Assembly: GCF_000091045.1 (NCBI RefSeq) | Contig: NC_006686.1 | Location: forward strand, 1,547,501 to 1,575,000 | Direction: 5' to 3' | Length of the DNA stretch: 27,500 nt | DNA from: Cryptococcus deneoformans JEC21 | Taxonomy: Eukaryota; Basidiomycota; Tremellomycetes; Tremellales; Cryptococcaceae | In this document: positions 4,283-27,478 of the stretch, piece by piece | Numbering within the stretch: position 1 is the stretch's first letter | Layout: every line of letters begins with the position of its first letter | Made by a program: the position numbers and the translations under genes | The notes under the pieces: model-generated | What the model was told of the DNA's origin: nothing | Databases searched by the model: none | Seen by the model: the letters and a program-made list of their open reading frames with translations, nothing else

Positions 4283-4633
4283 GGGCCTGTTCGGCAACTT
4301 CTTGCGCGTTTCAAAAAATTTCTGTGACTTTCAGAAGGGTATGAGTTTTTGCTGTGACCAGTGATTTGACTTTCTCCCGGGACCAAAAATCTGAATCGAA
4401 CCGTGCGCGTACCTGGTGACTTTGACTGGTGAGTTTGGCCTTTTTTCAAACTCGCCTCAAAATCGAGGTGAGTTTGTCCGGTGATTTTGGGACAAAAGTC
4501 ATACTCGACGCCGAACAGGACGAAAGCGTCAAAGTCACGGCGGTGATCTCACGTCGTGACTTTTTTGGACGGAATCAAATTTGGCTGGTGACTTTGGCAA
4601 AGTCATCACTTTTCGCGGTTGCCGAACAGGCCC
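4283..4633. mobile_element. 351-bp MITE-like element with 16-bp terminal inverted repeats
   Basis: The left end reads GGGCCTGTTCGGCAAC (4283-4298), and its exact reverse complement closes the element at 4618-4633. The flanking octamers CTACCTTT (4275-4282) and TTACCTTC (4634-4641) share TACCTT and differ at the two outer bases. That fits a worn 8-bp target-site duplication of the hAT superfamily. The interior repeats GTGACTTTG/GTGAGTTTG motifs in both orientations and has no credible ORF, so it would be non-autonomous. The family is inferred from TIR and TSD length only. Confidence 0.72.
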
Positions 4634-5289
4634 TTACCTTCTTTATCCGTACTCATTCTTAACCATTTCCTTTCCTTGTCAGCATGGTTATGGCTATGAC
4701 CCTTCCTTATTCCGCTTCAGTCCGCGTCCGAGCATACCTCATTATCTACGGCCGCGGCCTTGTTCATCAGTCTTCGAGAGGGCAAGGAGATACACGGAGA
4801 TAAAGAAATCGTCAACCTTCTACAAGCTTCTTTGCTACAGAGTTCCGACGACGCAGATAGATGTGGAACTGGTTAATGTGAGAACGAGGAGTCAGCAGAG
4901 GTTGAGATGTGTATGACTGCCATTTCATAGTTGTAAGTACTCGTCGATCCACTATTGTTGTCCTCTCCTCTCATTACCTTCCGTCCTCCTCACTTATCCG
5001 TTGAAGGCTATTGCTGGAAGAGATAGCCCTCTGACAAGTCCGTGAAATTGCAGCTGCATCTGTGTCCTCGAGGAAGCTGGAAAGCACCCTATGCTACTTT
5101 AGTTGTGTTCTCGATCGTTCGTCTACAGTTGTACTTGTAGCATTAAGTTTGAAGCTTGGGATGTGATGCTAAAGTGTCACAGGCGTCACGTCTCAGTCAG
5201 CGTAGCTGCGCGGCGCTCAACTCGGATGATGTAGGACTCGACAATAGAAAGTAAAGGTATCTAGTCTAGCAGAGCTAGATGGAGGAATT
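4634..5289. other. Intergenic DNA, no gene recognised
   Basis: Pyrimidine-rich stretches (around 4650-5000) and scattered GTAAGT/CAG pairs are present. I cannot assemble a reading frame with recognisable protein character on either strand. It could include transcribed non-coding sequence, but nothing in the bases proves it. Confidence 0.4.
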
Positions 5290-5375
5290 GCCAGGCTGAC
5301 GAAACAGAATCTGGACTTATGAGGAACGAATAGCCAGGCCTGAAGGAACAGGAGCTGGACTAATGAGCCTCGAGC
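5290..5375. repeat. Diverged 43-bp tandem duplication
   Basis: Two adjacent units begin GCCAGGCTGA (5290) and GCCAGGCCTGA (5333). Each continues through an AACAG, then CTGGACT, then ATGAG framework with several substitutions. The second unit runs into the left arm of the pheromone-promoter inverted repeat (from 5366). Confidence 0.55.
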
Positions 5376-5554
5376 TTTTTGTATGCCATTGCACTGTGGT
5401 GAGGGCACCCGGTAATACTTTGATGATAATTTAAGAGCTTGCCGAAAAACAATAAAGAACTACATATCCTGCCGGAGAACAATAGAACATTTTGAAAGCC
5501 TTTGCCGATTAAACAAAAAGACACATTAAACAAAAAGACACTCGGCGCTGATGC
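5366..5554 (-). repeat. Left arm of the pheromone-promoter inverted repeat (decayed promoter copy)
   Basis: This 189-bp arm is the reverse complement of 5637-5807. It is 18 bp longer because it carries a 17-bp tandem duplication (ATTAAACAAAAAGACAC at 5508-5524 and again at 5525-5541) plus a 1-bp insertion. Read on the minus strand it is a pheromone promoter copy with faults: the TATA box is TACAAAAAG instead of TATAAAAAG, and one response element reads TTTATTGTTT (5447-5456) instead of ending in TTC. The other element is intact (TCTATTGTTC, 5477-5486). The sequence beyond it on the minus strand holds no pheromone ORF. Confidence 0.9.
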
Positions 5555-5687
5555 CAAAGAAACAATGAAAGAGAGAGGCCTTTTACGCTTTTTGCAGATT
5601 CCGCCAAAACCTAAGTTTTCTTTTGTTGTTTCTCCAGCATCAGCGCCGAGTGTCTTTTTGTTTAATCGGCAAAGGCTTTCAAAATGT

Positions 5688-5697
5688 TCTATTGTTC
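5688..5697 (+). promoter_or_regulatory. Pheromone-response element, TCTATTGTTC
   Basis: Exact match to YYYATTGTTC, the element I recall as the target of the HMG-box factor Mat2 in Cryptococcus pheromone-induced genes. It lies 199 bp upstream of the MFalpha start codon and is followed by TCCGGCA, as in the second copy (TTCGGCA). Confidence 0.75.
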
Positions 5698-5716
5698 TCC
5701 GGCAGGATATGTAGTT

Positions 5717-5726
5717 CTTATTGTTC
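5717..5726 (+). promoter_or_regulatory. Pheromone-response element, CTTATTGTTC
   Basis: Second exact YYYATTGTTC match, 29 bp after the first, in the same orientation and with the same trailing YCGGCA context. Paired spacing suggests cooperative HMG-factor binding; that is inference. Confidence 0.75.
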
Positions 5727-5789
5727 TTCGGCAAGCTCTCAAATTATCATCAAAGTATTACCCGGTGCCCTCACCACAGTGCAATGGCA

Positions 5790-5798
5790 TATAAAAAG
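5790..5798 (+). promoter_or_regulatory. TATA box of MFalpha
   Basis: TATAAAAAG lies 97 bp between its end and the ATG at 5896, downstream of both response elements. A CT/CA-rich leader follows, typical of highly expressed fungal genes. Confidence 0.75.
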
Positions 5799-5895
5799 CT
5801 CGAGGCTTCCCCCTTTTTCTCGCTCATTAGACAGCAACTCAATCCTCACTACCGACCAGCAACCAACCATCGCTACTCCACAACCAGTTACAATA

Positions 5896-6012
5896 ATGGA
5901 CGCCTTCACTGCCATCTTCACCACCTTCACTTCTGCCGCCACTTCCTCTTCTGAAGCTCCTCGCAACCAGGAGGCCCACCCTGGTGGCATGACCCTTTGT
6001 GTCATCGCCTAG
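5896..6012 (+). CDS. MFalpha: Mating pheromone precursor, alpha type (farnesylated lipopeptide)
   Basis: A complete 38-codon ORF with no intron. It starts MDAFTAIFTTF, has a Ser/Thr/Ala-rich leader, then APRNQEAHPGGMT, and ends LCVIA-stop. The terminal CVIA is a CaaX box: the Cys would be farnesylated, VIA removed and the Cys carboxymethylated. Processing at Asn-Gln would release the lipopeptide that starts QEAHPGG, which I recall as the Cryptococcus MATalpha pheromone. The peptide is exported without a signal sequence by a Ste6-type ABC transporter and sensed by Ste3 on the opposite mating type. The promoter has a TATA box and two pheromone-response elements within an inverted repeat. Cryptococcus alpha strains usually carry several nearly identical copies; this is the only intact one in the window, so its copy number cannot be given. 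Confidence 0.95.
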   Translation: MDAFTAIFTTFTSAATSSSEAPRNQEAHPGGMTLCVIA

Positions 6013-6592
6013 ACCCAACGTCCCCTCTGCACGCGCGTGTTAGTCGCTATTCTACTTTGCAAAGCATTACGAAGTTGCTCATATTTAATCATAGCTGGTA
6101 TTCGCATCATATCGCAAGACTAGGTCGAAGCATATCGTCGGACAGATGGTAACGAAGCGTATGGGACTTGTTTAGATGGTATTGACATCATGTATAAATA
6201 TAAAGTAGTCCATTTAGACAAATAAGAACGAAAGAAACAGTGGTCCAAAAGCATCATATCTACCATCCAGCAGATCAATCCCTCGGTTTCAGGGAGACAA
6301 AATATACAAACAGAATCTAACTTATCTTTATATATTAATATTCCCCGTGTCACCTTTGAAAATTTCCTCACTTTTCGCCTTCGTTCTCATCCGTGACCCC
6401 CACAACCTCCCATTCAACCGCCACCGTTACGTAGACGAAAATCGTCTCTACATGTCTATACCCTTTTCAGACGTGCATGCATCGAACCATGGACATGAAA
6501 AACGTCGCCAAAAAAAATCGTGACCGTGCCTGAAGGCATGGATTTTTTTTTTTCATATGCATGGCGGATATCGCCGCCGCCCCGGTTTCATT
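6013..6592. other. 3' region of MFalpha and intergenic DNA
   Basis: The first 100-200 bp should be the pheromone 3' UTR. The rest is AT-rich with homopolymer T tracts (around 6541-6553). No reading frame with recognisable protein content was found. Confidence 0.4.
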
Positions 6593-6956
6593 AGGGAAGC
6601 TCACGATGCGATTTTTTTTCAAAAATCGTCGATTTTTGGCGCTTAATTAACCATCGATTTTCCATCGATTTTTGATCGATTTTTGTTAATAATCCTAATT
6701 ACAAAAAAATCGATTAAAAAAAAATCGACCTTTTGACATCGATTTTCTATCGATTTTTGCCTGATGTCATGACATGGAACTTCTCGCTTTTTCTGGAGAT
6801 TTGAACCTCTGGTCATCTCTTTGTAGACGGAGATTTACCTAACTCCGAGGTCCAGAAATCGGTTTGAAATTATTAACGTCACCTGGGCCACTCACAGCTA
6901 AATCGCCGATTTTTATAAAAATCGATTAGAAAAAAAATCGCACCGTGAGCTTCCCT
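6593..6956. mobile_element. 364-bp MITE with AGGGAAGCTCACG termini
   Basis: The left end AGGGAAGCTCACGATGCGAT is matched by the reverse complement of the right end (ATCGCACCGTGAGCTTCCCT) with one mismatch. The similarity continues into poly-T/poly-A. A 3-bp direct repeat ATT flanks both sides (6590-6592 and 6957-6959), which fits a Harbinger/PIF-like or related family. The left half is packed with ATCGATTTTT units in both orientations, so it should fold strongly. There is no ORF; it is non-autonomous. Confidence 0.75.
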
Positions 6957-7287
6957 ATTCGTCGTCGTTCGTGGAATAACCTTCCGTTTCTAGAACTTCC
7001 TTTACGTTTCTTCTTCTGTTATACGTATCTTCTCATGCCACGGATTCCTGGACCTTCTACTGCACTATAAACTGCTTTAACTGCCTTTATTCCGCTAAAA
7101 CGCACCTATCCCGACGACTCCTCTTTCCATCCCCTGTCCCTAAACACCCTGGAGACCCGCCTTCTTCAACTGTACCTCCTCAGTCACACTCATCCAACCG
7201 TCACCGTCCTCCAAATCCTCTCCCTGGCGGTGACGTGCCCCCGAGTTTTATGGCCCCTCGAACCAAACAACAAACAGCAATCGCCAT

Positions 7288-8420
7288 AACTTGGCTGCCT
7301 GTGACGTATTATGCCCAAAATATCATGTTAGATTTTGGATAGACGAGCATGCGGATGGCGACCGGAAGTGGCAAAGCTCTCCAGCTGCTAACCCTACAAT
7401 ACATGATGTGCCAATGAAGCTGTACAGCTACCTCTGCCTACAGATCCTGAACCTGAACTTTACGAGCTAAGCTTTCGACCAGTAATTCGGAAGGTACGCC
7501 TCCCTTCTACCCAGTCCCCTTGATCATACCTCTGTGAAATCACCTAGAATGCAGCCGGCTTCAGAAGCGACCTTCGCAGCTATAACCGCGCTTTGGCTAT
7601 GCCGTCTATTGGCTTCAAACATCGACATCAATCCGTCTGGGGACTCAAAGGCATTCGATCTGTTACCCATTTGCAGCCGAGTCTTATCATCTCATCAGAT
7701 TCCTTTTGTCTGCGCCTGGAGACGCCTCTATTTATGCTCAGGTCGGTATGTCCGAACTTAACGAAGATAGCAGAGTCCAGCAACTTAACAGAATTGAAAT
7801 GCCTTCAACTACTGTGATCGGCCTTAACGAAGATAGCAGAGTCCACCAACTTGACAGAGTTGAAATGCCGTCAACTACTGTGATCGGCAATCCTCAGGCG
7901 GATTCAGCAGATGTCGCTGTGTGTAGATTTTTATATCAAATAACTCCTAACAGTTAAGGCAAGACTGCAGCGAGAGCCTCATGTAAGTGCGTTTTACTTC
8001 ACAGTTGTATAATATAGCTAACGTTTCCGCTGTAGGCAAATCCGCTCACGCCTACTAAACCCGAAACAACATGATCATCGTCGATACAATCTCCCTACAG
8101 TGGATGACGTCGCGGCTACCATGCAAGCTCTGAAATAGAACCTAGCAGCGGCCGTGGGACCATACAGGAAACCTATGGAAGTAAAAAATCTCAACGTGTG
8201 AGCGAGAAAAGCCGCCACTTTTTACACCTCCATTTCATTCTGATTTATCACCAGCGAGGGAGAATATGGATGGTATTCCTAGATCCCATCTCGCTGAAGG
8301 GCGTAACTACCCATCATCAATTATAGAACTCACATCCTCTGCTAACATCGTCATTTCAGGATGAGGCAGGAACGGTACAAAAAGTCCCTATGGAGCAATC
8401 CTATGCCTTACGGTCTTATT
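7288..8420 (+). pseudogene. Decayed Helitron replicase-helicase (N-terminal part)
   Basis: Successive translated pieces in order resemble the N-terminal half of Helitron proteins. They are a CxxxC/WIDE segment (NLAACDVLCPKYHVRFWIDE, from 7288), VQLPLPTDPEPELYEL (about 7418), FRSDLRSYNRALAMPSIG (7560 on), YHLIRFLLSAPGDASIYAQ (about 7680-7740), HDHRRYNLPTVDDVAATM (about 8068-8125) and EGEYGWY (about 8255-8275). They lie in different frames. Some changes of frame can be explained by introns (for example GTAAGT...GCTGTAG at about 7984-8036), others need frameshifts. A stop follows MQALK. The Rep HUH motif and helicase are not visible. This is an eroded, non-functional remnant; the assignment rests on remembered family motifs. 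Confidence 0.55.
7757..7888 (+). repeat. Two 66-bp tandem repeats inside the Helitron remnant
   Basis: The copies are 7757-7822 and 7823-7888, identical at 62 of 66 positions. Both are open in one frame and encode LNEDSRV..L.R.EMPSTTVIG, a 22-residue unit. All four differences are single-base changes. Confidence 0.85.
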
Positions 8421-26604: not shown

Positions 26605-27478
26605 ACTTTGAATTACTCTCCCTAGGCTTCCCCCCCGGGTTGCGTCCGGATCAGGCGCGTGAATCAGTTTAAATACATTTAGGCATGGAAAGGTCACTCC
26701 TTCGGGCTGTAAACTAACAAAGGCTTGCGACAAATGGTCGCGGGGCACTTCACTGAAGGACAGCTTGCTTAATTGCGACTCATATGTATGTCGTGCCACT
26801 GGCACGCAAGGGACGAAGAAGACAAAACATGCATTCATGCACTTGTAATGCGTCCTGTTACTCGCTACTTGGAAAGCTTAGCCTATTCACGCAAGATCCT
26901 ATCCATGCATATATACATATATAAGTACAGTAGAATACAGTAAATTAATCATCCGATGGAACCGATACAACAGACTTCCTCTTCTTAAACACAGACAGAG
27001 ACAATTTCACATCAAAAAATGGCACTCGACGGTAGCTCCTCCTCTGTTCCCTTTGAGTTGGCAACTTACCGTCTACGTACCTATTCACATGATGGCGTAT
27101 ATCATCACCACGGAGTCGCACCTGTGACTCAGCTCGCTTCTTCCACCATGAGGCCAGCTTGGGGCCTTCGGCTTTTCCCCGTCAGTAGGCAAAGGGAGAT
27201 ATGCGTGGCAGGATACACAGATCATTTAATTGGCGGTATATAATCAGGGGCGATATGGATAGATGGATGGATAAAGAAGGAAGCTGTGGTGGAAGAAGAA
27301 AATGACTGAATGCGTTTGTTGTTTGTTGGGTTGTTTGATGTTTGGTTTTTTGTTGTTTCGTAGTTTGGCAAACGGCCGCGCCTGACGCATGCCTAAATGT
27401 AGTTGAACTGATTCACGCGGTTCACGCGCCTGATCCGGACGCAACCCGGGGGGGAAGCCTAGGATTTCACTTTGAATT
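26605..27478. mobile_element. 842-bp element with 65-74 bp terminal inverted repeats and flanking 10-bp direct repeats
   Basis: The left inverted repeat is 26621-26685 (CCTAGGCTTCCCCCCCGGGT...TTTAGGCATG). The right one is about 27389-27462, its reverse complement, with an extra GCGTGAACC-type duplication and a few substitutions. ACTTTGAATT occurs just outside both ends (26605-26614 and 27469-27478), separated by 6 bp from each arm. If these are a target-site duplication, its length (9-10 bp) would fit a Mutator-like (MULE) family. The interior has no transposase. Confidence 0.7.
27019..27243 (+). CDS. Small hypothetical ORF inside the 26621-27462 element
   Basis: 74 codons, starting MALDGSSSSVPFELATYRL and ending LIGGI-stop. 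It is preceded by a TATA-like run (TATATACATATATAAG, about 26909-26925) and a CA-rich leader with AAAAATGG around the ATG. His/Tyr-rich centre, no signal peptide, no membrane segment, no CaaX end. No family recognised. The promoter-like context is the only argument for it being real, and it could belong to the mobile element or be chance. Confidence 0.25.
   Translation: MALDGSSSSVPFELATYRLRTYSHDGVYHHHGVAPVTQLASSTMRPAWGLRLFPVSRQREICVAGYTDHLIGGI

What the first reader, a model, noticed from the sequence alone, without database searches (positions are those of the whole stretch)
5366..5807. Pheromone promoter present as an inverted repeat in which only the gene-facing arm keeps its control sites
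The two arms (5366-5554 and 5637-5807) are near-identical. The few differences fall on functional bases of the left arm: TATAAAAAG has become TACAAAAAG, and one response element TTATTGTTC has become TTTATTGTTT with an inserted T. The left arm also has a 17-bp tandem duplication and no pheromone ORF beyond it. The right arm, 88 bp from MFalpha, is intact. The simplest reading is a former head-to-head pair of pheromone genes that lost one partner, with selection now acting on one arm only. Alternatively the left arm still binds Mat2 through its remaining element and acts as an enhancer or forms a cruciform.
Basis: partly seen in the sequence, partly recalled or inferred. Interest (0 to 1): 0.85.

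Follow-up and report, generated by a model that had tools for sequence, protein, structure and literature searches.

The report
Half-lost pair of yeast pheromone genes
A yeast pheromone gene still carries the mirror-image half-promoter of a lost twin gene; an intact twin pair sits nearby and the loss itself was already reported in 2004, so this is a well-preserved relic rather than a new mechanism.

Summary
The inverted repeat is real: arms 5366-5554 (189 nt) and 5637-5807 (171 nt), spacer 82 nt. The same genome holds one other copy of the whole block, 17.5 kb away (C4:1534912-1535348, 97%), and there it is the shared promoter of an intact head-to-head MFalpha pair. The window block is that unit with one gene gone. 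Its left arm ends just past the TATA position, against the first ~187 nt of a ~616-nt LTR-like repeat. No partner-gene trace was found in 15.4 kb to the left. Fraser 2004 (PMC526376, passages) already says that this variety's fourth pheromone gene was replaced by a retroelement.

Only 2 of 5 private left-arm changes hit motifs, and one gene-bearing arm has 4 private changes. Selection on one arm only is compatible but not shown (P = 0.18; Fisher P = 0.44). Enhancer and cruciform roles remain untested.

The parts
5366..5554 (-). Left arm: orphan MFalpha promoter arm, gene lost
   Evidence: Inverted copy of the right arm; corresponds to the arm of the pair's right-hand gene
5375..5383 (-). Changed TATA box (TACAAAAAG on minus)
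   Evidence: Differs from 3 of 3 gene-bearing arms
5447..5455 (-). Changed Mat2-type element (TTATTGTTT on minus), with one extra T beside it
   Evidence: Differs from 3 of 3 gene-bearing arms; element consensus recalled
5477..5485 (-). Intact Mat2-type element of the left arm (CTATTGTTC)
5508..5541 (.). 17-bp tandem duplication, also present in the pair's right arm
5555..5636 (.). Spacer, with a 4-nt AG-repeat length difference against the pair
5637..5807 (+). Right arm: intact promoter arm of MFalpha
   Evidence: No private change among four arms
5689..5697 (+). Mat2-type element CTATTGTTC
5718..5726 (+). Mat2-type element TTATTGTTC
5790..5798 (+). TATA box TATAAAAAG
5896..6012 (+). MFalpha pheromone precursor gene, 38 aa, ending CVIA (probably MFalpha1; name inferred)
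   Evidence: Pfam Pheromone 21.0 bits, just under the curated cut-off of 22
5175..5363 (+). Truncated LTR-like repeat (positions 1-187 of ~616) abutting the left arm

Best explanation
The block is a palindromic two-way MFalpha promoter, one of two such units that lie inverted to each other in the MATalpha locus. In the intact unit, 17.5 kb away, each arm fronts its own pheromone gene. In the window unit the gene that faced the other unit is gone together with its leader, and an LTR-like fragment now abuts the arm just past the TATA position. The remaining left arm is a promoter without a gene. It carries five changes of its own, two of them in its TATA box and in one Mat2-type element, while the arm in front of MFalpha is unchanged, through use and perhaps through gene conversion with the other unit. 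Shown here: the anatomy, the intact sister unit, the truncation, the LTR-like neighbour and the mosaic identity. Inferred: that the loss came by element insertion plus deletion, that the arm is now unused, and that conversion homogenises the arms.
For: The 442-nt block matches one other place, C4:1534912-1535348, at 97%. MFalpha ORFs lie on both sides of it and point away from each other (sequence read). Homology of the window unit to it runs from 5366 to 6212 at 98.3% and ends at 5366. The left flank is positions 1-187 of a ~616-nt repeat at 87%; of 38 matches to that repeat in the genome, 18 are about full length, the query copy included. The partner's leader, ORF and 3' flank leave only one 16-nt and one 13-nt match in 15.4 kb to the left. 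Three of four arms agree against the left arm at the TATA base and at the element base. Fraser 2004, passages: three or four MFalpha genes in ~500-bp repeats usually flanking PRT1/ZNF1 in inverted orientation; in var. [quoted passage not shown] neoformans MATalpha and the C. gattii complex.
Against: The left arm has not clearly changed more than one gene-bearing arm (5 versus 4 private changes). Two motif hits of five is not significant (P = 0.18), nor is the contrast with 0 of 4 (Fisher P = 0.44). No sequence from another strain or species was aligned here, so the direction of change rests on four arms of one genome and on the papers. The LTR-like repeat has no 3' end at the junction, so simple insertion does not explain it, and only one of three full copies read shows a 5-bp target duplication. 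ZNF1 was not identified between the units.
Confidence: 0.88

Rival explanations
1. The orphan arm is kept by selection as an upstream enhancer: its intact Mat2-type element and the spacer-side half add to pheromone induction of the remaining MFalpha gene.
For: One of its two elements is intact. All 5 private changes lie in the gene-side half of the arm and none in the spacer-side half (P about 0.04, tested after looking). In PMC2829064 a 1-kb MFalpha1 promoter, long enough to include both arms, was used in a construct (passage).
Against: The spacer-side half is also nearly unchanged in the other arms, as conversion or simple recency would give. The 1-kb construct did not reproduce normal regulation according to its authors. 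No single-arm test was found in the listings.
Confidence: 0.12
2. Only the promoter was duplicated in inverted orientation; there never was a second gene at this place.
For: No remnant of a second ORF was found to the left.
Against: The window unit shares spacer, duplication and arm polarity with an intact pair, the arm is cut at an LTR-like fragment, and relatives are described with two pairs (PMC12510652).
Confidence: 0.03
3. The palindrome matters as DNA structure (cruciform) or as a site for inversion between the two units.
For: Pheromone-gene inverted repeats are proposed to mediate MAT inversions (PMC12510652).
Against: No fold or breakpoint test was made here, and an 82-nt spacer makes extrusion less likely (general knowledge). 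It would not explain the loss of one gene.
Confidence: 0.05

Closest known systems
Intact head-to-head MFalpha pair of the same genome, C4:1534707-1535552 (MFalpha2/3; names inferred from PMC2829064)
   Same: Same palindromic promoter, spacer and leaders; 98.3% over 848 aligned columns
   Different: Both genes present and both arms with intact TATA and elements; the window unit has one gene and an LTR-like fragment where the other was
MFalpha gene pairs flanking PRT1/ZNF1 in C. neoformans MATalpha and the C. gattii complex (PMC526376 and PMC12510652, passages and sections)
   Same: Two inverted units; a WD-repeat exon with an eIF2A domain, as expected of PRT1, lies between them here
   Different: Two pairs are described in relatives; here one pair and a half. 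ZNF1 not identified here
Y-chromosome palindromes kept by gene conversion (cited in both papers)
   Same: Inverted copies of sex genes in a non-recombining region, with a conversion-like mosaic
   Different: Far shorter; conversion here is inferred from four arms of one genome

Membership tests
MFalpha promoter-gene unit of Cryptococcus | Pheromone precursor gene with a C-terminal CAAX box beside the promoter | tested here: met
   38-aa ORF ending CVIA at 5896-6012, three copies found in the genome; Pfam Pheromone at 21.0 bits, under its cut-off of 22
MFalpha promoter-gene unit of Cryptococcus | Mat2-type elements (YYATTGTTC, recalled) in each arm | tested here: met
   7 of 8 sites present across four arms; the missing one is in the gene-less arm. 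In the whole window 4 sites against 1.15 expected; 2 of 100 shuffles had as many
Head-to-head MFalpha pair | A pheromone gene on both sides of the palindrome | tested here: not met
   Window: gene on the right only. Other copy: met
Two inverted MFalpha units flanking PRT1/ZNF1 | Second unit in inverted orientation with PRT1 and ZNF1 between | tested here: inconclusive
   Inverted second unit found. Window 1273-1551 hits eIF2A (38.2 bits), window 1949-2632 hits nothing. ZNF1 not found: 0 of 7 of the 8 L004 open frames of 85 aa or more had a Pfam hit
Solo LTR of a retroelement beside the arm | TG...CA ends and 5-bp target duplication | tested here: inconclusive
   Full copies run TGTCACG...CGTGACA; 1 of 3 copies read shows a 5-bp duplication; gag and protease frames lie beside one copy (L041), but that they belong to the same element was not shown
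Relaxed selection on the gene-less arm | More changes, or more motif changes, than in gene-bearing arms | tested here: inconclusive
   Private changes 5 (left arm) against 4, 0 and 0; motif hits 2 of 5 against 0 of 4, Fisher P = 0.44
Functional Mat2 target | Binding and pheromone-induced transcription from each arm | not testable with these tools
   PMC3744442 passages say Mat2 recognises elements upstream of MFalpha1-3; arms not separated

The most novel reading that the evidence does not exclude
The orphan arm is under selection: its one intact Mat2-type element and its spacer-side half boost the remaining MFalpha gene, so the loss of a gene turned a two-way promoter into a one-gene promoter with a captured upstream enhancer.
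Probability: 0.12. Interest if true: 0.4.

Novelty: already known. Interest (0 to 1): 0.22.

Why it matters
It shows at base level how one of four redundant pheromone genes was lost from a non-recombining mating-type region, and it leaves a natural comparison: the same promoter arm with and without a gene in one genome. Whether an unused promoter decays or is preserved by gene conversion becomes testable across strains. The gene loss itself is not new.

Tried and rejected
Rejected: the 17-bp duplication as a sign of decay (shared with an arm in front of an intact gene). Rejected as a strong claim: that the differences fall on functional bases (2 of 5, P = 0.18). Rejected: simple LTR insertion as the whole story (no 3' end of the repeat at the junction).

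Led nowhere: a Pfam scan for ZNF1 in L004 (0 of 7 frames given, of 8 listed). Finding the Mat2 element in print: one search listed 13 of 14 papers, none with the literal consensus; one search listed 15 of 152, none with ATTGTTC; the Kruzel 2012 paper is not held. The consensus is therefore recalled. (10 of 10 and 12 of 78 papers listed; listings only) showed no single-arm promoter dissection. Sister species and other strains could not be aligned: the genome has no relatives in the held set. I did not scan genome contigs (bacteria and archaea) or viral contigs, and metagenome contigs allows no scan. I ran no protein-database, structure-prediction, solved-structure, strand-folding or RNA-family search.

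Full report
What is there. The window is bases 1547501-1575000 of contig C4 of a 19.05-Mb, 14-contig genome. Size, contig number and mating-type genes fit C. deneoformans JEC21 (formerly C. neoformans var. neoformans, serotype D); that name is my inference from recalled facts. The inverted repeat has arms 5366-5554 and 5637-5807 and an 82-nt spacer. The right arm ends 88 nt before the MFalpha start codon at 5896.

The decisive comparison. A search of the whole genome with the 442-nt block finds one other place, C4:1534912-1535348, in inverted orientation at 97% (such counts are lower bounds). A search with the MFalpha ORF finds three copies: the window gene, C4:1534707-1534823 (minus, 100%) and C4:1535437-1535552 (plus, 97%). 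The last two flank the second copy of the block and point away from each other, so the second copy is an intact head-to-head pair. The window unit matches it from 5366 to 6212 at 98.3% over 848 columns. The window's left arm corresponds to the pair's right arm: both have the same side of the spacer and the 17-bp duplication. The lost gene was therefore the counterpart of the pair's right-hand gene and faced the segment between the two units.

What lies where the gene was. Homology ends at 5366, just past the TATA position. Positions 5175-5363 are the first ~187 nt of a ~616-nt dispersed repeat, at 87% identity. A full copy has 38 matches in the genome, of which 18 (the query copy included) are about full length. 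The three full copies that I read begin TGTCACG and end CGTGACA; one shows a 5-bp target duplication (TAGAG) and two do not. This looks like a solo LTR but is not proved to be one. In the window the last two thirds of the repeat are missing, so a deletion or other rearrangement came with or after the insertion. BLASTN with the pair's leader, ORF and 3' flank against 15.4 kb to the left found one 16-nt match (E 0.005) and one 13-nt match (E 0.33), both to the 3' flank. TBLASTN of the peptide against the window, L003 and L004 found the three known copies and two poor matches (E 1.5 and 8.3).

Four arms compared. The left arm has 5 private changes: one inserted T and four substitutions. Two are in motifs: the last base of one Mat2-type element and one base of the TATA box. 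The pair's left arm, which fronts an intact gene, has 4 private changes (2 substitutions, 2 single-base indels), none in motifs. The window's right arm and the pair's right arm have none. Outside the arms, the window's spacer is 4 nt longer in an AG repeat. The consensus YYATTGTTC is recalled (Kruzel 2012, not held); that Mat2 recognises elements upstream of MFalpha1-3 I saw in passages of PMC3744442. The chance of 2 or more of 5 changes in 27 of 171 positions is 0.18; Fisher's test against 0 of 4 gives 0.44. All 5 left-arm changes lie in the gene-side 91 of 173 columns (P about 0.04, tested after looking). Relaxed selection is plausible but not shown.

Conversion-like mosaic. The window gene's arm has 0 substitutions and one indel (the duplication) against the pair's right arm, and 2 substitutions and 2 indels against the pair's left arm. 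Its leader, ORF and 200-nt 3' flank have 0, 0 and 1 substitutions against the pair's left gene, but 0, 4 and 96 (with 4 gaps) against the pair's right gene. This suits the intra-allelic conversion proposed in print, but few changes carry it, and private changes in the pair's left arm would explain part of it without conversion.

What is known. Fraser 2004 (PMC526376; [quoted passage not shown] It says that in var. [quoted passage not shown] The shared 3' flank of 200 nt fits the first statement. PMC12510652 (passages; section 13 part 1; [quoted passage not shown] neoformans MATalpha and the C. gattii complex, and states that all three MFalpha copies of C. deneoformans are expressed. PMC2829064 (passages) lists the deletions mfalpha1::ADE2 and mfalpha2,3::URA5, from which I infer that the window gene is MFalpha1 and the pair MFalpha2/3. 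In the parts I read, the promoter arm left behind is not mentioned; I read none of these papers whole.

Verdict. Added here is base-level anatomy: the orphan arm, its end against an LTR-like fragment, which gene was lost, the two motif changes seen against three other arms, and the correction that the duplication is shared and so no sign of decay.

Noticed in passing
13953-14438: Inverted repeat of 214-nt arms (98%) with a 58-nt gap. The genome has 13 other copies of a ~270-nt repeat matching one arm plus the middle, so the window copy looks like an inverted dimer. Some copies lie within about 2 kb of copies or pieces of the 616-nt repeat on C3, C7, C13 and C14.
   Followed up: partly
6592-6957: ~366-nt element with inverted ends (TAGGGAAGCTCACG), MITE-like, downstream of MFalpha; at least 7 other places in the genome hold copies or pieces.
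   Followed up: partly
26621-26687 and 27388-27463: Inverted stretches of 43 nt (100%) and 32 nt (94%) about 700-760 nt apart, right of the kinase gene; possible transposon ends.
   Followed up: no
7757-7888: 66-bp tandem duplication, 94% identical.
   Followed up: no
L003:7937-8052: The pair's right-hand MFalpha gene has 4 base differences and one residue change (T to A at residue 9) against the other two copies, which are identical.
   Followed up: yes
4286-5162: The stretch left of the LTR-like fragment is a patchwork of other dispersed repeats at about 70-91% identity.
   Followed up: partly
6323-6590: A dispersed repeat of ~260 nt between MFalpha and the MITE-like element, with about a dozen relatives at 81-97% in the genome, some partial.
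   Followed up: no
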